This document shows positions 54,115 through 64,000 of a stretch of 64,000 nt of DNA, in pieces. Where the stretch lies: NCBI RefSeq assembly GCF_014199525.1, contig NZ_JACHNU010000005.1:124001-188000 (forward strand). Reading direction: 5' to 3'. The translations under genes were made by a program, and so were the position numbers. The stretch comes from Conexibacter arvalis. Lineage in GTDB: Bacteria; Actinomycetota; Thermoleophilia; Solirubrobacterales; Solirubrobacteraceae. Under the pieces are notes generated by a model. That model was not told the DNA's origin and searched no databases. It was given only the letters and a program-made list of their open reading frames with translations. How positions within the stretch are numbered: the stretch's first letter is position 1; the number at the start of each line of letters is the position of its first letter.

Positions 54115-54753
54115 CTACGCGCCGGTGCGGACCGGCGCGTAGAGCGTGTTCCAGACGATCGCCGTGTACGCGTCGATCTGGGTGCGCAGCTGCGCCGGTC
54201 TGAGGCCGCGCAGGAAGACGTGGAAGGCGCGCTCGGCCATCCACGTCAGCCACTGCGCCGTCTCGGCCGGCGGCAGGTCGGGGTCGATGAACCCGGCCGC
54301 CTGGCCGTTGCGGATGTGCTTGCGCAGGCTGGCGATGTTCGCACCCATCATCGCGTTGACCAGCTCGCGCACGCTCGGGTCGTACTCGGCGGCGTCGTAG
54401 GTCGCGGCCATCAGCGGGGCGTGGGGGTGGTAGACCTCGACGACCCTCGCCAGCGCGGCGCGCAGGTCCTCGCGCGAGGAGTCGGCGTCGATCTCCCACC
54501 AGCCCGACACCGCCGCGGCGATCTCGCTCTCGATCTCGCCGAACCAGGCGCGCAGCAGGTCGCCCTTGTCCTCGAAGTAGACGTAGTAGGTCGAGCGCGA
54601 CATGCCGGCCTCCTGGACCATCCGCTCGACGCTGATCTCGGTGAAGCTCTCGCCGTCGTCCAGCAGGCGCTGGACGACCTCGAGGAGGCGGTCGCGGATG
54701 GCCTCGCGCCGGGCGGCGCGTCTGCTCTGCGGCTTGCGTGTCGCGGACGGCAT
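54115..54753 (-). CDS. TetR family transcriptional regulator (EthR-like)
   Basis: This is a 212-residue repressor. The N-terminal helix-turn-helix (about 15-65: AIRDRLLEVVQRLLDDGE, ISVERMVQEAGMSRSTYYVYFEDKGDLL) resembles EthR-type proteins. The ligand domain contains the Trp-rich WEID segment and Tyr/Phe-rich helices for hydrophobic ligands. Its -10 box TAGACT (54763-54768, complement) overlaps the end of the acyl-CoA dehydrogenase gene. A dyad AAGACcgtacGTCTT (54770-54784) next to it could be its own operator, different from TGTCCGGACA. It remains a candidate for the regional repressor. Confidence 0.84.
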   Translation of the reverse strand: MPSATRKPQSRRAARREAIRDRLLEVVQRLLDDGESFTEISVERMVQEAGMSRSTYYVYFEDKGDLLRAWFGEIESEIAAAVSGWWEIDADSSREDLRAALARVVEVYHPHAPLMAATYDAAEYDPSVRELVNAMMGANIASLRKHIRNGQAAGFIDPDLPPAETAQWLTWMAERAFHVFLRGLRPAQLRTQIDAYTAIVWNTLYAPVRTGA

Positions 54754-54765
54754 CGCCGCGACAGT

Positions 54766-55926
54766 CTAAAGACCGTACGTCTTCGCGATCACATCAAGCA
54801 TGATCTCGTCCGCGCCGGCGCCGATCCGGTACAGCCGCAGGTCGCGCATGATCCGCTCGACCGGGTACTCGCTGACGTAGCCGGCGCCGCCGTGGATCTG
54901 CACGCACTCGTCGGCGACCATCCAGGCGACCTGCGCCGCCTTCAGCTTGCTCATCGAGATCTCGCGGACGTTGTACCTGCCGGCGGCGTAGTCGGCGGCG
55001 GTCGCGTAGATCAGGCGGCGGGTCGCCTCCAGCTCCATCGCCATCCGCGCGAACTTGTGGCGGATCGCCTGGTGGCTGCCGAGCGGCTTGCCGAAGGTCC
55101 GGCGCTCGAGCGCGTACTGGAGCGTCAGGTCGAAGGCGCGCTGGGCGTAGGCGAGGCAGCCGGCGGAGGCGATCGCGCGCTCGGCCTGCAGCTCCCACAT
55201 GATCTGGTGGAAGCCGCGGCCGACCTCGCCGAGCACCGCCTCCGGGCCGACGCGCACGTCCTGGAGCGCGATCAGCGCGGTGTCGGAGGCGTGCATGCCC
55301 ATCTTCTGGAGCGGCTTCTCCAGCACGATCCCGGGCGTGTCCATCGGGATCAGGAAGGTCGTGAAGCCGTCGTAGCCGGCGTCGGGGTCGGTCTTGACGA
55401 CCGTCAGCATCATGCCGGCGCGATGGCCGTTGGTGATGTAGGTCTTGGCGCCGTTGATGACCCAGTCGTCGCCGTCGCGGACCGCGCGGGTCGTGATCGC
55501 CGCGACGTCGGAGCCGGCGTCGGGCTCGGTGATCCCGAGCGCGAAGATCGTCTCGCCGGCGATCCCGGCCGGGAGCCAGCGCCGCTTCTGCTCCTTGGTG
55601 CCGAACTCGAGCAGCGGCGGCATCACCATGTCGGTGTGGACGGAGAGCCCCATCAGCAGGCCGCCGGAGCCGCCGCGCGCGATCTCCTCGGCGAGCACGA
55701 TGTTGGTGAAGTAGTCGCCGCCCTGGCCGCCGTACTCCTCGGGCATCGACAGCCCGAGGAAGCCCAGCTCGCCCATCCGCCGCACGATCGCGTCCGGGTA
55801 GGTCGTCTGCTCCCAGGCCGCGGCGTGCGGCGCGATCTCGCGGTCGACGAACGAGCGGATCGACTCGCGCAGCTGGTCGTGGACGTCGCTGAAGATCGAC
55901 GTCGAGGGATGCTCGAGGGTGCTCAT
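54766..55926 (-). CDS. Acyl-CoA dehydrogenase
   Basis: This 386-residue flavoprotein oxidises acyl-CoA to 2-enoyl-CoA and hands electrons to ETF. FAD-binding blocks are ALGITEPDAGSD (129-140), WVINGAKTYITNG and RRTFGKPLGSHQAI. The usual C-terminal base (the Glu of YEGT) is absent: the sequence there is RIGAGADEI. The base is probably Glu249 in LQAERAIASAG, the position used by isovaleryl-CoA and long-chain dehydrogenases. TACGAT ends 6 nt before the ATG. It is divergent from the 3-hydroxyacyl-CoA dehydrogenase, sharing an exact TGTCCGGACA site. Confidence 0.88.
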   Translation of the reverse strand: MSTLEHPSTSIFSDVHDQLRESIRSFVDREIAPHAAAWEQTTYPDAIVRRMGELGFLGLSMPEEYGGQGGDYFTNIVLAEEIARGGSGGLLMGLSVHTDMVMPPLLEFGTKEQKRRWLPAGIAGETIFALGITEPDAGSDVAAITTRAVRDGDDWVINGAKTYITNGHRAGMMLTVVKTDPDAGYDGFTTFLIPMDTPGIVLEKPLQKMGMHASDTALIALQDVRVGPEAVLGEVGRGFHQIMWELQAERAIASAGCLAYAQRAFDLTLQYALERRTFGKPLGSHQAIRHKFARMAMELEATRRLIYATAADYAAGRYNVREISMSKLKAAQVAWMVADECVQIHGGAGYVSEYPVERIMRDLRLYRIGAGADEIMLDVIAKTYGL

Positions 55927-55932
55927 CGGTTG

Positions 55933-55987
55933 ATCGTACAGTATGTCCGGACACTATGAATGAGCAGAGTGCCCGATGCGGTACCGT
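55933..55987. promoter_or_regulatory. Divergent promoters with exact TGTCCGGACA operator
   Basis: TGTCCGGACA (55944-55953) lies 18 bp upstream of the acyl-CoA dehydrogenase start. TACGAT (55933-55938, complement) is its -10 box. On the plus strand TACCGT (55982-55987) ends 7 nt before the 3-hydroxyacyl-CoA dehydrogenase ATG. A regulator at this site would act on the dehydrogenase promoter directly and lie just upstream of the other's -35 region. Confidence 0.65.
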
Positions 55988-55994
55988 CGCCGCC

Positions 55995-57578
55995 ATGGCT
56001 ATCCCGAACACGATCGGCGTCGTCGGCGCGGGCACGATGGGCGCGGGCATCGCGCAGCTCGCCGCGCAGGCCGGCGCCCGGACGCTGCTGCACGACCCCG
56101 TCCCGGAGGCGCTCGAGCGCGGGCTCGCGACGATCGCCGCGGGTCTCGACCGGCAGGTCTCCAGAGGGCGGCTCGACGCCGCCGAGGCGGCGGCGATCCG
56201 CGCCCGCGTCGAGCCGGCCGCCTCGCTCGATGCGCTCGCGCCGTGCGGGCTGGTGATCGAGGCGGCGCCCGAGCGCCTCGAACTGAAGCTCGACCTGTTC
56301 GCGCGGCTCGCCGAGATCACCGCTCCCGACTGCGTCTTCGCGACCAACACCTCGTCGCTGTCGGTCGCCGAGATCGCGGCGGGGACGCCGCGGCCGGAGC
56401 GCGTCGTCGGCCTGCACTTCTTCAACCCCGCGCCGGTGATGCGGCTCGCCGAGGTCGTCCCCGGCGTCGCGACCGCGCCGGAGGTCGTCGCGACCGCGCG
56501 CGCGGTCGGCGAGGCGATGGGCAAGCGCGTGATCGACGCCGCCGACGTCGCCGGCTTCCTCGTCAACCGCGTCAACCGACCGTTCTTCCTGGAGGCGCTG
56601 CGGGTCGTCCAGGACGGCCAGGCGACGGTCGAGCAGGTCGACCGCGCGATGCGGATGGGCGGCGGCTTCCGGATGGGCCCGTTCGAGCTGATGGACCTGA
56701 TCGGGATCGAGACCAACCACGCCGTCGCCGAGGGCTTCTACCGCCAGACGCTGGAGCCGCGCTACCGGCCCTCGCCGCTCGCGGCGCGGATGGTCGCCGC
56801 CGGGCGCCTCGGCCGCAAGACGGGGCAGGGCTGGTACCGCTACGGCGACGGGGATGGCCGCCCGGCCGACCCCGAGCCGCCGGCCGCCGGCGGCGGCGAC
56901 GGCCGTCCGCTCGCGATCGACGGCGACGGTCCGGCGCTCGACGCGCTGCGCACGGCCGCGCGCGCCGCCGGCTGGGACGTCGGCGCGCACGCCGAGCCGT
57001 ACCTCGCGATCGCCGCGGCTGGCGCGGCTGGCGCGGCGGGTGCGGGCGGCGCGGCTGGCGCGGGCGGCGCGGCGGGTGCGGGCGGCGCGGCTGGCGCGGG
57101 CGGGACCGCCCCGCGCGCGCTGTTCCTCGCCGGCGCCTCGCTCCACCTCAGCGACCCGCGCGCGGTCGGGATCCACCTGCTGGCGCCCTTCGACGGCGCG
57201 CGGCTGGTCGAGCTGACGCGCACGGAGGCGAGCGATCCGGTCGCCGCCGAGCGCGCCGAGGAGCTGGTGCGGACGCTCGGCCGCCATCCCGAGTGGGTCG
57301 GCGACGGGCCGGGCCTCGTGCTCGGCCGCGTCGTCGCGCAGCTCGTCAACGAGGCCGCCTTCCTGATCGGCGAGGGCAACGGCGCGCCGGAGGACGTCGA
57401 CGCCGGGATGGAGCTGGGCGTCAACCACCCGCGCGGGCCGGTCGCCTGGTCGGCGGCGCTCGGAGGCGCGCACGTGCTCGCGATCCTCGACGGGCTCCAG
57501 CAGGAGCTGCGGGAGGAGCGCTACCGCGCCGCGCCGCTGCTGCGCCGGCGCGCGGCGCTCGGGCTCGCGCTCGCGTGA
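55995..57578 (+). CDS. 3-Hydroxyacyl-CoA dehydrogenase
   Basis: This 527-residue NAD-dependent enzyme of beta-oxidation has a Rossmann start IGVVGAGTMGAGIAQ, the catalytic His in GLHFFNPAPVM, and NTSSLSVAEIA. A first 3HCDH_C domain (about 180-285) is followed by a low-complexity Gly/Ala linker and a second, diverged C-terminal domain (about 400-520). Such double-C-domain proteins resemble PaaH. The ATG at 55995 is preferred over 55956 because TACCGT lies 7 nt before it. It is divergent from the acyl-CoA dehydrogenase and acts two steps later in the same spiral. Confidence 0.87.
   Translation: MAIPNTIGVVGAGTMGAGIAQLAAQAGARTLLHDPVPEALERGLATIAAGLDRQVSRGRLDAAEAAAIRARVEPAASLDALAPCGLVIEAAPERLELKLDLFARLAEITAPDCVFATNTSSLSVAEIAAGTPRPERVVGLHFFNPAPVMRLAEVVPGVATAPEVVATARAVGEAMGKRVIDAADVAGFLVNRVNRPFFLEALRVVQDGQATVEQVDRAMRMGGGFRMGPFELMDLIGIETNHAVAEGFYRQTLEPRYRPSPLAARMVAAGRLGRKTGQGWYRYGDGDGRPADPEPPAAGGGDGRPLAIDGDGPALDALRTAARAAGWDVGAHAEPYLAIAAAGAAGAAGAGGAAGAGGAAGAGGAAGAGGTAPRALFLAGASLHLSDPRAVGIHLLAPFDGARLVELTRTEASDPVAAERAEELVRTLGRHPEWVGDGPGLVLGRVVAQLVNEAAFLIGEGNGAPEDVDAGMELGVNHPRGPVAWSAALGGAHVLAILDGLQQELREERYRAAPLLRRRAALGLALA
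57016..57110. repeat. Tandem Gly/Ala-coding repeat in the 3-hydroxyacyl-CoA dehydrogenase linker
   Basis: GCGGGCGGCGCGGCTGGC-type units of 18 bp recur about four times, alternating between CTG- and GGG-containing versions, to give a 36-bp higher-order period. They encode (GAAGAG)n in frame, consistent with a flexible linker prone to slippage. Confidence 0.75.
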
Positions 57579-57608: not shown

Positions 57609-58409
57609 TCAGCGGCCGGTGAAGCGCGGGCGGCGCTTCTCCTTGAAGGCGGCGACGCCCTCGGCGTAGTCGGCGGTCGTCGCGTGCCGCTGCTGGACGC
57701 GGGCCTCCAGCTCCAGCAGCGGCTCCAGCTCGCCGCCGAGCGAGGCGTTGACGATCTCCTTGATCGACGCGAGCGCTGTCGTCGGCATCGCGGCGAGGCG
57801 GGCGGCGAGCCGCTCGCCGGCGGCGCGCAGCTCGTCGTCGGCGACGACCTCGTTGACGATGCCCCACTCGTGCGCGGTCGCCGCCGGCAGCTTCTCGCCG
57901 AGCATCGCGAGCTGGGCGGCGCGGGCCGGCCCGACGCGCGCGACGAGGTGGGGGAGGACGCCGCCGTCCGGCATCACGGCGATGTGGATGAACGCCAGCA
58001 GGAAGGTCGCCGACTCGGCCGCGACGACGAGGTCGCAGGCGAGCGCGAGCGAGCAGCCGAGGCCGGCGGCGGCGCCGTGGACGGCGGCGACGGCCGGCTT
58101 CGGCATCCGCCGCAGCTCCAGCACGATCGGGTTGTAGATCTGCTCCAGGCGGCTGTGCAGGTCGGGCGACCCGTCCGGCTCCAGCTCGCGCGGGACCTTC
58201 ACGTCGGCGCCGGCGCAGAAGGCGCGGCCGGCGCCGGTGATCAGCACGGCGCGGACCGCGTCGTCGGTCGCGGCGGAGCGCAGCGCGGCAAGCAGCTCGC
58301 GGCCCATCTCCGGGGTCCAGGCGTTGAGCGCCTCGGGGCGGTTCAGCTCGATGTGGGCGACGGCCCCGGCGCGCTGAACGCGGATGTCGGTGGCGTGTAC
58401 GGGATGCAC
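57609..58409 (-). CDS. Crotonase family protein, PaaG/isomerase type
   Basis: This 266-residue crotonase has the oxyanion segment AFCAGADVK (63-71). The first Glu of hydratases is replaced (GLGCSLALACD). The second site reads FIHIAVMPDGG with Asp148, like PaaG-type isomerases. GTG at 58409 is chosen because TACAAT (58417-58422, complement) ends 7 nt before it. It is divergent from the HMGCS-like/DUF35 gene, with a TGTCCGGACg site between. Confidence 0.84.
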   Translation of the reverse strand: MHPVHATDIRVQRAGAVAHIELNRPEALNAWTPEMGRELLAALRSAATDDAVRAVLITGAGRAFCAGADVKVPRELEPDGSPDLHSRLEQIYNPIVLELRRMPKPAVAAVHGAAAGLGCSLALACDLVVAAESATFLLAFIHIAVMPDGGVLPHLVARVGPARAAQLAMLGEKLPAATAHEWGIVNEVVADDELRAAGERLAARLAAMPTTALASIKEIVNASLGGELEPLLELEARVQQRHATTADYAEGVAAFKEKRRPRFTGR

Positions 58410-58416
58410 GGACGCA

Positions 58417-58448
58417 ATTGTACGGCCTGTCCGGACGCTGTGTACGGT
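58417..58448. promoter_or_regulatory. Divergent promoters around a TGTCCGGACg site
   Basis: TGTCCGGACG (58428-58437) has one mismatch to the regional palindrome. TACAAT (58417-58422, complement) is the -10 of the crotonase and TACGGT (58443-58448) the -10 of the HMGCS-like gene. The site sits between the two boxes, ideally placed to block both. Confidence 0.65.
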
Positions 58449-58454
58449 CTGTGT

Positions 58455-59819
58455 ATGGCTCACGGAATCCTCTCCTACGGCGCCTACGTGCCCCGGCACC
58501 GCCTGCGCCACGCCGAGCTCGGCGCAGCGCTCGGGAGCGGCGGCGGCAGCGGCGCCCGCGCGGTGGCGTCCTACGACGAGGACAGCACCACGATGGGCGT
58601 CGAGGCGGCGCGCGCGGCGCTCGCGAACGGCGCCGCGCCGACGGCGATCCACTTCGCCACCACGGCGCCCGCCTACGCCGACAAGACCAACGCGACCGCG
58701 ATCCACGCGGCGCTCGACCTCGACCGCCAGGGGTTCGCGGTTGACCTCGTCGGCTCGGCCCGCGGCGCGGTCGGCGCGCTGCGCCAGGCGGCGGCCGGCG
58801 GCGGGCTCGCCGTGCTCAGCGACCTGCGCACCGGCCGTCCCGGCTCGGCCGACGAGCGGGCCGGCGGCGACGCGGCGGCGGCCTTCCTGTTCGGCGCCGG
58901 CGAGCCGATCGCGACCGTGCTGGCGGAGGCGTCGGCGACCGCCGAGTTCCTCGACCGCTGGCGCAGGCCCGGCGAGCTGGCGAGCGGGCAGTGGGAGGAG
59001 CGCTTCGGCGTCGAGGCCTACCTGCCGCTGATCGCCGACGCCGTCGGCCGCGCGCTCGCCGAGGCGGGGGTCGAGGAGCCCGATCGCGTGATCGTCTCCT
59101 CGCCGCACGCGCGCGCGGCCGCGACCGCCGCCAAGCGGCATCCCGGGCGGATCGCGGAGGAGGCGCCGGCGATCGGCTACAGCGGCGCCGCCGACCCGGG
59201 GCTGCGGCTCGCCGCGGCGCTCGACCGCGCCCGACCGGGGGAGACGATCCTGCTGGTCGTCGCCGCCGACGGCTGCGACGCGACGGTGCTGCGCGTCGAG
59301 CCGGCGATCGAGCGCGCGCGGCCGGCCAGGACGGTCGCGCAGCTGGTCGAGGGCGGGCGCGACCTGCGGTACGCGACCTACCTGACGTGGCGCGGGCTGC
59401 TCGAGCGCGAGCCGCCGCGCCGGCCCGAGCCGGGCCGCCCGGCCGGGCCGCCCTCCCACCGCTCCGAGCGCTGGAAGTTCGCGTTCGTCGGCTCGCGCTG
59501 CACCGCCTGCGGGCAGGTCCACGTCCCGCCGCGGCGCGTCTGCGTCAACTGCCGGGCGGTCGACGCGATGGAGCGCGCGCCGCTGTCGCGGCAACCCGGC
59601 CGCGTCGCGACCTACACGGTCGACCGGCTCGCCTTCTCGCCCTCGCCGCCGATGATCGACGTCGTCGTCGACTTCGAGGGCGGCGGCCGCTACACGCTCG
59701 AGGCCGCCGACGCGTCGCCGGAGGAGATCGAGATCGGGACGCCGCTGGAGCTGACCTTCCGCCGGCTCTACACCAGCGGCGGCGTGCACAACTACTTCTG
59801 GAAGGCGAGGCCAGCCTGA
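58455..59819 (+). CDS. HMG-CoA synthase-like/KAS III-like domain fused to a DUF35 OB-fold
   Basis: This 454-residue fusion has a thiolase-fold N-terminal part (about 1-310), recognised by PAYADKTNATAIHAAL and the FAVDLVGSARGAVGAL segment. The catalytic Cys of HMG-CoA synthases is not present there: the best-aligned residue is Ser101. The C-terminal part (about 330-450) is a DUF35 protein with a rubredoxin-like zinc knuckle (Cys349, Cys352, Cys363, Cys366) and an OB-fold. The stop overlaps the thiolase ATG (TGATG). Archaeal complexes join HMG-CoA synthase and thiolase through DUF35; this fusion recalls them. Role is inference. Confidence 0.75.
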   Translation: MAHGILSYGAYVPRHRLRHAELGAALGSGGGSGARAVASYDEDSTTMGVEAARAALANGAAPTAIHFATTAPAYADKTNATAIHAALDLDRQGFAVDLVGSARGAVGALRQAAAGGGLAVLSDLRTGRPGSADERAGGDAAAAFLFGAGEPIATVLAEASATAEFLDRWRRPGELASGQWEERFGVEAYLPLIADAVGRALAEAGVEEPDRVIVSSPHARAAATAAKRHPGRIAEEAPAIGYSGAADPGLRLAAALDRARPGETILLVVAADGCDATVLRVEPAIERARPARTVAQLVEGGRDLRYATYLTWRGLLEREPPRRPEPGRPAGPPSHRSERWKFAFVGSRCTACGQVHVPPRRVCVNCRAVDAMERAPLSRQPGRVATYTVDRLAFSPSPPMIDVVVDFEGGGRYTLEAADASPEEIEIGTPLELTFRRLYTSGGVHNYFWKARPA

Positions 59820-61015
59820 TGGCGAGCAGAGGCATCAAGGATCGCGTCGCGATCGTCGGCATGGGCTGCACGGCGTTCGGCGAGCACTGGGACAGAAGCG
59901 CCGACGACCTGCTCGTCGACGCGACGCAGCAGTGCTTCGCCTCGACGCCCGCGCTGCCGAAGGAGGAGGTCGACGCCTACTGGCTCGGGACGATGAACTC
60001 GGGCCAGTCGGGGACCGTGCTGTCGAAGCCGCTCGGGATCGACTACAAGCCCGTCACGCGCGTGGAGAACATGTGCGCGACCGGCTCGGAGGCGTTCCGC
60101 AACGCTTGCTACGCCGTCGCCGCCGGCGCCTACGACCGCGTGATGGCGGTCGGCGTCGAGAAGCTGAAGGACACCGGCTACTCCGGCCTCGTCCGCTCCA
60201 ACGTCGCCGGCGACGGCACCGCGCCGGAGGAGACGCTGACCGCGCCGGCGGCCTTCTCGCTGCTCGACCCGGCCTACTGCCGCAAGTACGACGTCGACCC
60301 GGCGGCGATGCGCGACGCGATGACCCACGTCGCGTGGAAGAACCACGTCAACGGGGCGAAGAACGAGCGGGCGCAGTTCCGCAAGGAGGTGCCGAAGGAG
60401 AAGATCGACGCCGGCGCCGGCCGCGTCGCCGGCCGGCTCGGGGTGATGGACTGCTCGGGCGTCTCCGACGGCGCCGCCTGCGCGCTGATCGTGCGCGCCG
60501 AGGACGCCTACAGATACACCGACAGGCCGATGTTCGTGAAGGCGCTGTCGGTGATCGCGGGACCGGCCAGTGGACCGATCGACCCCGGCTACGACTACAC
60601 GACCTTCGACGAGGTCGTCGCCTCGGCGCGGGACGCCTACGCGCAGGCCGGCATCACCGACCCGCGCCGGCAGCTGTCGCTCGCCGAGGTCCACGACTGC
60701 TTCACGCCGACCGAGCTGGTGCTGATGGAGGACATGGGCTTCTCCGCGTGCGGGGAGGCGTGGAGAGACGAGCTCGACGGCGCCTTCGACCTCGACGGCG
60801 AGCTGCCGGTCAACCCCGACGGCGGGCTGAAGTCGTTCGGGCACCCGGTCGGCGCGAGCGGCCTGCGGATGCTGTTCGAGTGCTGGCTGCAGTTCCGCGG
60901 CGAGGCCGGCGCACGGCAGATCGCCGACGCCAGGCTCGGCCTCACGCACAACCTCGGCGGGCGCCCCGGCACGTGCGTCTCGTTCATCTCGATCGTCGGG
61001 GCGGAGCTGGGATGA
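59819..61015 (+). CDS. Lipid-transfer (SCP-x/Ltp) type thiolase
   Basis: This 398-residue thiolase-fold enzyme has nucleophile Cys86 in ENMCATGSEA, the HDCFTPTE segment (His of the second site) and GHPVGASG (the terminal motif). The HDCF form places it with SCP-x and Ltp proteins, which cleave 3-oxoacyl-CoA or 3-hydroxyacyl-CoA with tertiary carbons in steroid side-chain degradation, rather than with degradative thiolase FadA. Ltp2-type aldolases need a DUF35 partner, and the fused gene directly upstream provides one. Substrate unknown. Confidence 0.84.
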   Translation: MASRGIKDRVAIVGMGCTAFGEHWDRSADDLLVDATQQCFASTPALPKEEVDAYWLGTMNSGQSGTVLSKPLGIDYKPVTRVENMCATGSEAFRNACYAVAAGAYDRVMAVGVEKLKDTGYSGLVRSNVAGDGTAPEETLTAPAAFSLLDPAYCRKYDVDPAAMRDAMTHVAWKNHVNGAKNERAQFRKEVPKEKIDAGAGRVAGRLGVMDCSGVSDGAACALIVRAEDAYRYTDRPMFVKALSVIAGPASGPIDPGYDYTTFDEVVASARDAYAQAGITDPRRQLSLAEVHDCFTPTELVLMEDMGFSACGEAWRDELDGAFDLDGELPVNPDGGLKSFGHPVGASGLRMLFECWLQFRGEAGARQIADARLGLTHNLGGRPGTCVSFISIVGAELG

Positions 61016-61785
61016 GCGCCTCCGCGCCGCTGCTGACCGAGCGCCGCGGGCCGGTGCTCGTGATCACGCTCAACCGCCCGGAGGTCCGCAACGCGGTCGA
61101 CCGTCCGCTCGCGGAGGGGATCGCCGCCGCGCTCGACCGGCTCGACGCCGAGGACGACCTGCGCGTCGGCGTGCTGACCGGCGCCGGCAGAGGGTTCTGC
61201 GCCGGCATGGACCTGAAGCGGTTCGCCGAGACCGGCGAGCGGCCGTGGGTCGGCGACCGCGGCTTCGGCGGGATCGTCCGCCGGGCCTCGGAGAAGCCGC
61301 TGATCGCCGCGCTGGAGGGGTTCGCCGTCGCCGGCGGCCTCGAGATCGCGCTCGCCTGCGACCTGCTCGTCGCCGCCCGTGGCACCAAGCTCGGGATCCC
61401 AGAGTCCAAGCGCGGCCTCGTCGCCGCCGGCGGCGGGCTGCGGCGGCTGCCGCGCCTGCTGCCCTCCGCGCTGGCGATGGAGCTGGCGCTGACCGGCGGG
61501 CTGATCACCGCCGAGCGCGCGTGGGAGGTCGGCGCGCTCAACCGCCTCACCGAGCCCGGCGAGGCGCTCGCGACCGCGCTCGAGCTGGCCGCCGAGATCG
61601 GCGCGAACGCGCCGCTGGCGCTGATCGGCGCCAAGCGGATCCTGCAGCGGCAGTGGTCGTGGGACGACGCCGAGTTCTGGGAGCGCCAAGCCGAGATCGT
61701 CGAGCCGATCGCAACCTCCAAGGACGCCCGCGAGGGCGCCCGCGCCTTCACCGAGAAGCGCCCGCCGGTCTGGCGCGGACGCTGA
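61012..61785 (+). CDS. Enoyl-CoA hydratase
   Basis: This 257-residue crotonase retains both catalytic Glu residues: Glu111 (GGLEIALACD) and Glu131 (GIPESKRGL), with oxyanion segment GFCAGMDLK (61-69). It is the only crotonase in the window with the full hydratase pair, so it is the probable 2-enoyl-CoA hydratase of the region. ATG at 61012 overlaps the thiolase stop. FAD oxidoreductase and CaiB genes follow in the same run. Confidence 0.87.
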   Translation: MSASAPLLTERRGPVLVITLNRPEVRNAVDRPLAEGIAAALDRLDAEDDLRVGVLTGAGRGFCAGMDLKRFAETGERPWVGDRGFGGIVRRASEKPLIAALEGFAVAGGLEIALACDLLVAARGTKLGIPESKRGLVAAGGGLRRLPRLLPSALAMELALTGGLITAERAWEVGALNRLTEPGEALATALELAAEIGANAPLALIGAKRILQRQWSWDDAEFWERQAEIVEPIATSKDAREGARAFTEKRPPVWRGR

Positions 61786-61805: not shown

Positions 61806-63086
61806 ATGTCTGAGCACACGGACGTACTGGTGATCGGGGCCGGGATGGGCGGCGTCTGCGCCGCCGCGCGGCTCGCCGCCGCCGGCCGCAGACCGCTGCT
61901 GGTCGAGCGCGCCGATCGCGTCGGCGGCCGCGCCTCCTCGTTCGAGCAGGACGGCTACACGATCAACACCGGCGCGGTCGCGATCGAGTACGGCGGCGCG
62001 ATGGAGGAGACCTTCAGGGAGGTCGGCGCCGAGTTCGCGCTGCGCTTCCCCGACCCGGCGAACGTCTTCCGCGTCGGCGGCAAGACGGTCAACCCGGCGA
62101 AGGGCGGCTGGGCCTTCCTGCTCGACCGGATCACGAAGAAGGGCGCGAAGGTCCTCACCCAGCTCGGCAGCGCCAAGCGCGGCGACTACCCCGAGGAGCA
62201 GCTGACGCTCGAGCAGTGGATCGCCAGAGCGACCTCCAACGAGACGGTCCACCGCCTCTTCCGCAACCTCGCCGCCGCGATCTTCGCCGTCAACGCCGAC
62301 GAGATCCCGGCGAAGGCGTTCCTGACGTACTTCATGGAGAAGGGGGCCTTCCGCAAGTTCGGCTTCCACCCCGACGGGACGATCGGCGTCTGCCGGGCGC
62401 TCGCCGACGTCGTCGAGCGCGACGGCGGCCGCATCTGGCTGGAGAGCGAGGTCGTCGCGCTGCACAGCGAGGAGGGCCGCGTCACCGGCGCGACGATCCG
62501 CCGCGGCGGCGAGGAGATCGAGGTCGGCTGCGCCGCCGTCGTCTCCAACGCCGGCCCCGACGCGACGATCGCGCTCGCCGGCGAGGAGGCGCTCGGCGCC
62601 GACTACGTCGCCTCGATCCGCAGGCTGTCGAAGCCGACCGCCAACTTCATCATCCACGTCGCCAGCGACGAGCCGCTGCTCGACACGCCCGGGCTGATCG
62701 TCTTCTCCAACACCGAGCGCGTCTGCAACGCCGGCAACATGACCGCGACCTGCCCCGAGCTGGCGCCGGAGGGCAAGCACCTGACCGTCGTCTACGCGGT
62801 GCCGCGGCCGGCGGTCGGCCCGTTCGACGCGGAGCGCGAGCTGCAGCTGTCGCTCGACGAGCTGCGCGCCGAGCTGCCGGGGATGGCCGAGGCGGAGGTG
62901 ATCGACGCGCGCGTCATGCAGGGCGACTGGCCGGCGCAGCGGGCGCTCTCCGGCTACGAGATGCCGCGCGAGACACCGCTCGACAACCTCTGGAACGTCG
63001 GCGACGGCGTGCGCGACTATGGCAGCGGCGGCACCCAGTCGTGCGCGGAGACCGCGCGCGACGTCGTCGCGGAGATCCTTGGATGA
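61806..63086 (+). CDS. NAD(P)/FAD-dependent oxidoreductase (phytoene desaturase-like)
   Basis: This 426-residue flavoprotein has an N-terminal dinucleotide motif VLVIGAGMGGVCAAARLA, the following RVGGRASSF stretch of amine-oxidase/phytoene-desaturase families, and a C-terminal LWNVGDGVRDYGSGGTQSC FAD block. These enzymes desaturate or reduce hydrophobic rings and chains. In a cluster with crotonases and a thiolase it may act on a lipid-like intermediate. It starts 20 bp after the hydratase and overlaps the CaiB gene at its end (ATGA). Confidence 0.8.
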   Translation: MSEHTDVLVIGAGMGGVCAAARLAAAGRRPLLVERADRVGGRASSFEQDGYTINTGAVAIEYGGAMEETFREVGAEFALRFPDPANVFRVGGKTVNPAKGGWAFLLDRITKKGAKVLTQLGSAKRGDYPEEQLTLEQWIARATSNETVHRLFRNLAAAIFAVNADEIPAKAFLTYFMEKGAFRKFGFHPDGTIGVCRALADVVERDGGRIWLESEVVALHSEEGRVTGATIRRGGEEIEVGCAAVVSNAGPDATIALAGEEALGADYVASIRRLSKPTANFIIHVASDEPLLDTPGLIVFSNTERVCNAGNMTATCPELAPEGKHLTVVYAVPRPAVGPFDAERELQLSLDELRAELPGMAEAEVIDARVMQGDWPAQRALSGYEMPRETPLDNLWNVGDGVRDYGSGGTQSCAETARDVVAEILG

Positions 63087-64000
63087 GCGGCGTGCTGTCG
63101 GGCATGCGCGTCGTCGAGGGCTCCGCGTTCGTCGCGGCGCCGCTCGGCGGCATGACGCTCGCCCAGCTCGGCGCCGACGTGATCCGCTTCGACCAGATCG
63201 GCGGCGGCCTCGACCGCGACCGCTGGCCCCTCGCCCCCGACGGTCAGAGCCTCTTCTGGGCCGGGTTGAACAAGGGGAAGCGGTCGATCCAGCTCGACCT
63301 CCGCTCCGACGAGGGGCGCGAGCTGGCGCAGGCGCTGATCACCGCGTCGGGCGAGGACGCCGGCCTCTTCCTGACCAACTTCCCCGCGCGCGGCTGGCTC
63401 GCCCACGACGTGCTGCAGGCGCGCCGCCGCGACCTCGTGATGGTCGCGCTGACCGGCAACCCGGACGGCTCCAGCGAGGTCGACTACACCGTCAACCCCG
63501 CGACCGGGTTCCCGTGGGCGACCGGCCCGCGCAACCTCGCCGAGCCGCTCAACAGCGTGCTGCCGGCGTGGGACGTGGCGATGGGCACGCTGGCGACGAC
63601 CGGACTGCTCGCCGCCGAGCGGCGGCGAGCGCGGACCGGGGAGGGGACGCTGGTGCGGCTGGCGCTCTCCGACGTCGCCTTCGCGATGGTCGGCAACCTC
63701 GGCCGCATCGCCGAGGCGCAGCTCGGCGGCCGCGACCAGCCCAAGGACGGCAACTACCTCTACGGCGCCTTCGGCCACGACTTCGAGACCCGCGACGGCC
63801 GGCGCGTGATGGTCGTCGCGCTGACGGCGCGGCAGTGGCGGGCGCTGCAGGACGTGACCGGGCTCCACGAGGCGTGTGCGAGCGTCGAGCGGGCGACGGG
63901 GTACGACCTCGGCACCGAGGCCGGTCGCTTCGAGGGGCGGGACCTGATCGCCGCGCTGCTACGGCCGTGGTTCGCGCAGCGCGAGATGCGCGAGATCCGC
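63083..64000 (+). CDS. CaiB/BaiF CoA transferase, 3'-truncated by the window
   Basis: The first 306 codons are visible and stay open to the window end. It begins MSGVLSGMRVVEGSAFVAAP, typical of the family, with the conserved GADVIRFDQIGGG and KRSIQLDLRSDEG blocks. The usual catalytic-Asp site falls near PAWDVAMGTLATTGLLAAE. It does not show the His/Asp racemase spacing of the gene at 51777. It overlaps the FAD oxidoreductase stop. The C-terminus lies outside the window. Confidence 0.84.
   Translation, partial: MSGVLSGMRVVEGSAFVAAPLGGMTLAQLGADVIRFDQIGGGLDRDRWPLAPDGQSLFWAGLNKGKRSIQLDLRSDEGRELAQALITASGEDAGLFLTNFPARGWLAHDVLQARRRDLVMVALTGNPDGSSEVDYTVNPATGFPWATGPRNLAEPLNSVLPAWDVAMGTLATTGLLAAERRRARTGEGTLVRLALSDVAFAMVGNLGRIAEAQLGGRDQPKDGNYLYGAFGHDFETRDGRRVMVVALTARQWRALQDVTGLHEACASVERATGYDLGTEAGRFEGRDLIAALLRPWFAQREMREIR

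What the first reader, a model, noticed from the sequence alone, without database searches (positions are those of the whole stretch)
58455..61015. HMGCS-like/DUF35 fusion without the catalytic Cys, coupled to an SCP-x type thiolase
The fusion joins a thiolase-fold domain with no Cys in its first half (Ser101 at the expected place) to a zinc-knuckle DUF35 domain, and it overlaps a lipid-transfer thiolase gene. Archaeal HMG-CoA synthase, thiolase and DUF35 form a complex, and steroid aldolases of the Ltp2 type need DUF35 partners. A non-catalytic synthase-like scaffold fused to DUF35 would be a new variant.
Basis: partly seen in the sequence, partly recalled or inferred. Interest (0 to 1): 0.68.

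Follow-up and report, generated by a model that had tools for sequence, protein, structure and literature searches.

The report
Fused dead-synthase scaffold beside thiolase
This gene encodes a worn-out copy of a known enzyme (HMG-CoA synthase, with all three catalytic residues gone) joined to a zinc-binding DUF35 domain; it is always found next to one working thiolase, so it is probably a non-catalytic partner that helps the thiolase cut carbon-carbon bonds during breakdown of CoA-linked compounds.

Summary
Window 58455-59819 (+) encodes 454 aa: an HMG-CoA-synthase-like thiolase-fold domain followed by a DUF35 zinc-ribbon/OB domain. It overlaps a thiolase gene (59819-61015) by 1 nt. The nucleophile position is Ala102, not Ser101; the Glu and His of HMG-CoA synthase are lost too. 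The loss holds in all 82 close relatives and in 34 more distant fusions. The fusion is a large family (460 encoding stretches in one scan; 68 of 396 genomes across the phylum have a match), and its thiolase follows it in every locus where it could be checked. That thiolase keeps Cys86, HDCF and GHP in all 80 close copies, so it is a real Cys-thiolase, not an Ltp2/Sal-type aldolase. Nearest solved relatives of all three parts are the archaeal thiolase/HMG-CoA synthase/DUF35 complex (6ESQ) and PhlABC, whose PhlA subunit is already known to be a dead synthase. Best reading: a PhlA-PhlB-like non-catalytic scaffold fused in one chain, serving a degradative thiolase. In the window's clade it sits with a Rieske dioxygenase and beta-oxidation genes. 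New variant of a known kind; complex formation and substrate are inferred, not shown.

The parts
58455..59819 (+). Fusion protein, 454 aa: HMG-CoA-synthase-like domain plus DUF35
   Evidence: N-terminus matches the start of the conserved family
58464..59402 (+). HMG-CoA-synthase-like (thiolase-fold) domain, residues 4-316, catalytically degenerate
   Evidence: PRK04262 E 2e-41; 6esq_I, PhlA; VIA Z 42.5 to 6esq_J over 318 residues
58758..58760 (+). Codon of Ala102, equivalent of the catalytic Cys of HMG-CoA synthase
   Evidence: A45 V23 G7 P3 I2 S1 T1 of 82 relatives, never Cys
59484..59558 (+). Zinc ribbon zf-ChsH2, Cys349/352/363/366
   Evidence: PF12172 35.9 bits, cut-off 23.2
59589..59762 (+). 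OB-fold OB_ChsH2_C, followed by the invariant C-terminal motif HxYFWK
   Evidence: PF01796 32.1 bits, cut-off 27.1; A1 invariant columns
59819..61015 (+). Thiolase (PRK06157 type), 398 aa, catalytic Cys86, HDCF 292-295, His342
   Evidence: NF004810 595 bits; motifs invariant in 80 of 80; 1-nt overlap with the fusion
61012..61785 (+). Enoyl-CoA hydratase, 4-nt overlap with the thiolase gene
   Evidence: PRK08252 356 bits, above cut-off
61806..63086 (+). FAD-dependent oxidoreductase (phytoene-desaturase/amine-oxidase fold)
   Evidence: PF01593 94 bits; also found in 21 of the 80 fusion loci
57612..58397 (-). Divergent enoyl-CoA hydratase/isomerase, PaaG-like
   Evidence: TIGR02280 263 bits, below the equivalog cut-off of 345
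55956..57578 (+). 3-hydroxyacyl-CoA dehydrogenase, PaaH-like, 540 aa
   Evidence: PRK08268 499.6 bits, cut-off 508
54766..55926 (-). Acyl-CoA dehydrogenase
58396..58454 (+). Three imperfect TGTACGG-N2-TGT repeats between the divergent promoters, candidate operator
   Evidence: related site at 55935-55948

Best explanation
The fusion is a catalytically dead HMG-CoA-synthase-like subunit joined to its DUF35 bridge. It is a PhlA-PhlB equivalent in one chain that binds the adjacent Cys-dependent thiolase (PhlC equivalent) and completes its oligomer and its substrate/CoA pocket, without doing chemistry itself. The thiolase performs the C-C bond cleavage (thiolysis) of a beta-ketoacyl-CoA, presumably bulky or ring-derived, made by the neighbouring acyl-CoA dehydrogenase, enoyl-CoA hydratases and 3-hydroxyacyl-CoA dehydrogenase. 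In the window's clade this module belongs to a pathway that also uses a two-subunit Rieske dioxygenase, i.e. aromatic-type CoA-thioester catabolism. Shown by sequence or model: fold, fusion, loss of the triad, intact thiolase, invariable adjacency, co-divergence, operon context. Inferred: physical complex, lack of activity, direction of reaction, substrate.
For: Cys, Glu and His all absent in 82 of 82 close fusions and in the 34 distant fusions aligned, down to about 30% identity. The Cys position drifts (A/V/G/L/P/I/T/S/Q) while Asp97 (82/82) and Arg103 (81/82) beside it do not. The thiolase triad is invariant in 80 of 80 partners. Mean pairwise identity over 77 loci: synthase-like domain 52%, DUF35 61%, thiolase 73%, so constraint is strongest in the thiolase. 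Thiolase next to the fusion in all 80 loci, 77 of them within 310 nt, and beside every more distant fusion where the downstream sequence is held. Mirror-tree r 0.94 over 114 pairs against at most 0.16 in 1000 permutations. Structure: Z 42.5 to the 6ESQ synthase, 39-40 to PhlA. DUF35 nearest is 6esq_E, 58 bits against 25 for the next; thiolase 6esq_A is second best. Precedent: only PhlC residues act in PhlABC, and PhlA lacks the Cys and Glu (PMC6392133). A Rieske alpha and/or beta gene of one subfamily (alpha mostly 62-69% identical, one 82%) lies in 31 of 56 full-length loci and at G000:C5:190599-192373, just past the window end. The window's fusion sits in a 29-row clade (SH-aLRT 96) with Rieske in 21 and without it in 1 of those that could be judged.
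Against: No interaction or activity was measured, and a heterocomplex could not be folded with these tools. The synthase-like domain keeps many invariant polar residues (Asp41-Glu42, Lys77, Asn79, Asp97, Arg125, Asp133-Glu134, Asp139, Glu164, Arg168, Trp180-Glu181), which is more than a bare scaffold needs and could mean ligand binding or another chemistry. The Rieske link is absent in other clades of the family (25 of 56 full loci), so the pathway varies.
Confidence: 0.72

Rival explanations
1. The synthase-like domain is not dead: it binds CoA or acyl-CoA and does Cys-independent chemistry (hydrolysis, decarboxylation, aldol/retro-aldol or acyl hand-over) on the product or substrate of the thiolase.
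For: Many invariant polar residues unlike those of HMG-CoA synthase at the same columns (N79 for T, R125 for A, D133 for L, D139 for A, R168 for F).
Against: Cys, Glu and His are replaced and the Cys position is free to drift. The domain diverges faster than the thiolase. PhlA, with the same losses, takes no part in the acyl transfer (PMC6392133).
Confidence: 0.15
2. The module is a steroid or bile-acid side-chain aldolase of the Ltp2-ChsH2 or Sal-Shy type, or an IpfD-IpfE type aryl side-chain cleaving enzyme.
For: Same DUF35 plus thiolase-superfamily pairing; a Rieske dioxygenase 43% identical to that of the ibuprofen plasmid pIBU218 is in the window's operon.
Against: The thiolase keeps Cys86, HDCF and GHP, whereas Ltp2 and Sal use YDHF and YDCY without thiolase chemistry (PMC12329534) and IpfD has no Cys and an FYDAF motif. 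IpfE is an unfused 132-aa DUF35 protein.
Confidence: 0.06
3. The complex runs in the synthetic direction or as a C-acyltransferase (PhlABC-like), not as a degradative thiolase.
For: Closest architectural precedent with a dead synthase subunit is PhlABC.
Against: Neighbours are beta-oxidation and ring-oxidation genes in the window, Rhodococcus, Variovorax and Mycobacterium. The thiolase is closer to 6esq_A (166 bits) than to PhlC (94 bits).
Confidence: 0.07

Closest known systems
PhlABC (PpATase) of Pseudomonas protegens, PDB 5M3K/5MG5
   Same: HMG-CoA-synthase fold subunit without catalytic Cys and Glu, DUF35 bridge, thiolase subunit with catalytic Cys and His; fold match Z 39-40 for PhlA
   Different: PhlA and PhlB are separate chains; here they are one. 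Thiolase of another subfamily (PRK06157) in catabolic operons rather than an antibiotic cluster. Identity to PhlA about 27%
[quoted passage not shown]
   Same: Nearest solved structure of the synthase-like domain (Z 42.5) and of DUF35; second nearest by sequence for the thiolase
   Different: Its synthase is active (Cys114, Glu82) and unfused; the triad is lost here
Ltp2-ChsH2 and Sal-Shy steroid side-chain aldolases
   Same: DUF35 domain paired with a thiolase-fold enzyme
   Different: Aldolase active sites (YDHF, YDCY); DUF35 carried on a MaoC hydratase, no synthase-like domain
IpfD-IpfE of ibuprofen degradation (pIBU218)
   Same: DUF35 and thiolase-fold pair next to a Rieske dioxygenase whose alpha subunit is 43% identical to the one in this operon
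   Different: IpfE is an unfused DUF35 of 132 aa; IpfD lacks the Cys and has FYDAF
BbsAB benzoylsuccinyl-CoA thiolase (7PXP)
   Same: DUF35 plus thiolase acting on an aryl beta-ketoacyl-CoA
   Different: No synthase-like subunit; thiolase match weaker (106 bits)

Membership tests
HMG-CoA synthase (catalytic) | Cys, Glu and His catalytic residues | tested here: not met
   A102, T70, S215; absent in all 82 close relatives
HMG-CoA synthase (catalytic) | Curated equivalog score | tested here: not met
   PRK04262 142 bits, cut-off 244; TIGR00748 83, cut-off 353
PhlABC-type multicomponent complex | Synthase-fold A subunit lacking Cys and Glu | tested here: met
   PMC6392133
PhlABC-type multicomponent complex | DUF35 B component and thiolase C component with catalytic Cys and His | tested here: met
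PhlABC-type multicomponent complex | A and B are separate polypeptides | tested here: not met
   one 454-aa chain, in all relatives of the family
PhlABC-type multicomponent complex | A2C2/B4 hetero-oligomer, cofactor-free acyl transfer to phenols | not testable with these tools
   needs purified protein
Archaeal thiolase/HMGCS/DUF35 channelling complex | Active synthase that uses the thiolase product | tested here: not met
   catalytic triad lost
Ltp2/Sal steroid aldolase with DUF35 | Thiolase Cys replaced, YDHF or YDCY motif | tested here: not met
   Cys86 and HDCF 80 of 80
IpfD/IpfE | Unfused DUF35 and IpfD-type thiolase fold without Cys | tested here: not met
SCP-x thiolase | SCP2 sterol-carrier domain fused to thiolase | tested here: not met
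   398 aa, only thiolase-superfamily domains found by Pfam
DUF35 (zf-ChsH2 plus OB_ChsH2_C) | Both Pfam domains above gathering score, four zinc Cys | tested here: met
   35.9 and 32.1 bits; Cys349/352/363/366

The most novel reading that the evidence does not exclude
The fused dead-synthase/DUF35 protein is a distinct, ancient class of thiolase partner that shapes or gates the thiolase pocket for bulky ring-derived beta-ketoacyl-CoAs, or carries an unrecognised Cys-free activity, in an undescribed Rieske-dioxygenase-dependent CoA pathway for aromatic or alicyclic acids that is widespread in Actinobacteria.
Probability: 0.2. Interest if true: 0.6.

Novelty: new variant of a known kind. Interest (0 to 1): 0.42.

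Why it matters
It extends the dead-synthase scaffold known from PhlABC to a large, mostly actinobacterial family of catabolic thiolases in which the two non-catalytic components are covalently joined, which fixes their stoichiometry. Database labels (hydroxymethylglutaryl-CoA synthase, OB-fold protein, acetyl-CoA acetyltransferase) hide this, so these genes may be wrongly counted as mevalonate genes. It also gives a genetic handle (one fusion, one thiolase) for asking why so many thiolase-fold enzymes need DUF35 partners, and points to an uncharacterised Rieske-linked CoA pathway.

Tried and rejected
A natural single-chain fusion of the synthase-like/DUF35 protein with the thiolase was looked for as direct proof of contact: none among the 80 loci. 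Two long frames (L128 1121 aa, L129 1163 aa) have no recognised domain in the extra N-terminal part and are probably just long open frames. Ibuprofen (ipf) identity of the pathway was considered because Patulibacter medicamentivorans I11 carries two copies, but the held stretches of its two loci show no Rieske gene and IpfD/IpfE differ. Steroid-aldolase identity was rejected on motifs. Literature searches found no description of this fusion with its thiolase, though only open-licence PMC papers were searched; the 6ESQ and Ltp2 papers themselves were not held. The model's coordinates were not readable by script, so conserved residues could not be mapped in 3D.

Full report
The observation. The reading frame at 58455-59819 (+) gives a 454-residue protein. 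Its first 317 residues match archaeal-type HMG-CoA synthase (PRK04262, E 2e-41, 142 bits, under the curated cut-off of 244), and residues 344-436 match the two DUF35 Pfam domains above cut-off. The stop codon overlaps the ATG of a 398-residue thiolase by one base. The thiolase scores 595 bits with NCBIfam PRK06157 and holds no SCP2 domain. No Cys occurs before residue 274 of the fusion.

The loss is general and complete. In 82 close members (80 loci from named genomes, the window, and the second copy in the same genome) the Cys position is A, V, G, P, I, S or T; the Glu position is T, S or A; the His position is S, A, V, T or C. Thirty-four more distant fusions, down to about 30% identity, agree, with L, Q, A, V and others at the Cys position. 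Neighbouring residues Asp97 and Arg103 are fixed (82/82 and 81/82), so the column is aligned securely and free to drift.

Fold. AlphaFold2 with a 53-row alignment gives mean pLDDT 90.7 and pTM 0.92, with a weak linker at about 320-340. VIA-align ranks the synthase of the archaeal complex first (6esq_J, Z 42.5, rmsd 1.9 over 318 residues), then PhlA (Z 39-40, rmsd 2.7-2.8 over 326-327) and MucA of MucABC (Z 37). By sequence, DUF35 is nearest to the DUF35 chain of the same archaeal complex (58 bits, next 25). The thiolase is nearest to ST0096 (179 bits) and to the archaeal complex thiolase (166 bits), ahead of PhlC (94 bits).

Family and partner. One scan found 460 encoding stretches in species genomes, in Actinobacteria, Chloroflexi, Rokubacteria and Acidobacteria; plasmid relatives add Proteobacteria. 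Sampling 396 genomes across the phylum gave matches in 68. In all 80 loci the thiolase lies next to the fusion (77 within 310 nt, one at 503, two at 1.3-2.0 kb). The more distant fusions also have it where the sequence is long enough. Pairwise identities of fusion and thiolase correlate at r 0.94 over 114 pairs, against at most 0.16 in 1000 permutations. Shared ancestry explains much of that, so it shows co-inheritance, not contact. The thiolase keeps Cys86, His-Asp-Cys-Phe 292-295 and His342 in 80 of 80, so it should be an ordinary Cys-dependent thiolase. Mean pairwise identity is 52% for the synthase-like domain, 61% for DUF35 and 73% for the thiolase.

Phylogeny. On a tree of the synthase-like domain the fused proteins fall on one side (SH-aLRT 82) and the unfused ones (archaeal synthase, PhlA, two unfused actinobacterial subunits) on the other. 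That fits a single fusion, but the support is moderate and the root is only a midpoint.

Context. The window holds a TetR gene, an acyl-CoA dehydrogenase, a PaaH-like dehydrogenase, a divergent PaaG-like hydratase, the fusion, the thiolase, another hydratase (4-nt overlap) and an FAD oxidoreductase. Just past the window end (window base 64000 = contig C5 base 188000) come another hydratase, Rieske dioxygenase alpha and beta subunits and an NAD(P)/FAD reductase. A Rieske alpha and/or beta gene of the same subfamily is present in 31 of 56 full-length loci. The window's fusion lies in a 29-row clade in which 21 have it and one is known to lack it. R. opacus PD630, M. avium and Variovorax SRS16 plasmids show the same set. 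In Variovorax the Rieske alpha subunit is 69% identical although the fusion is only about 37% identical, so different fusion/thiolase pairs occur in similar pathways. Other clades have other surroundings, such as MaoC/CoA ester lyase in Sphingobium. The pair is therefore a portable module and the Rieske link belongs to this clade.

Mechanism. In PhlABC only PhlC residues take part in acyl transfer; PhlA lacks the key Cys and Glu, and both PhlA and PhlB are needed for an active complex (PMC6392133). The most economical reading is the same division of labour with A and B fused: the synthase-like domain and DUF35 build the oligomer and part of the pocket, and the thiolase cleaves the C-C bond of a beta-ketoacyl-CoA. 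The last step and the substrate are inferred from gene context only.

Against known families. It is not an HMG-CoA synthase (triad and score fail), not an Ltp2/Sal aldolase (motifs fail), and not IpfD/IpfE (unfused DUF35; IpfD has no Cys). It works like PhlABC but differs in being fused and catabolic. A 2010 structure paper already notes DUF35 fused to thiolase-superfamily domains and an inactive partner in phlABC (PMC2954200), so the claim is a new variant, not a new kind.

Noticed in passing
G000:C1:229973-231364 (-), L002/L094: Second fusion in the same genome, 51% identical, also followed by its own thiolase, near a CoA ligase, an SDR and transporter genes; no Rieske gene seen in 20 kb.
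   Followed up: partly
L037, L038, L041, L046, L056, L059, L065-L069, L079, L081: Thirteen relatives, those with a named origin from Acidimicrobiia or Candidatus Microthrix, have lost all four zinc-ribbon Cys of DUF35 together (C/C/C/C to D/S/S/G) while keeping the rest of the domain: a zinc ribbon without zinc ligands.
   Followed up: partly
window 58396-58454 and 55935-55948: Three imperfect TGTACGG-N2-TGT repeats (spacing 22-23 nt) between the divergent hydratase and fusion genes, and a related site between the divergent acyl-CoA dehydrogenase and PaaH-like genes; candidate operators for the TetR regulator at 54115-54753.
   Followed up: partly
L095:10897-12084 (pIBU218, IpfD): IpfD, described as part of a thiolase for ibuprofen, lacks the thiolase Cys and has FYDAF in place of HDCF; it may be an aldolase-type lyase rather than a thiolase.
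   Followed up: no
L132, L133: Unfused synthase-like subunits without the catalytic Cys, followed by thiolases with a YNSF motif: another, separate type of dead-synthase/thiolase pair.
   Followed up: no
L007 and L073 (Patulibacter medicamentivorans I11): This ibuprofen-degrading strain carries two copies of the fusion/thiolase pair; a role in ibuprofen breakdown is untested.
   Followed up: no
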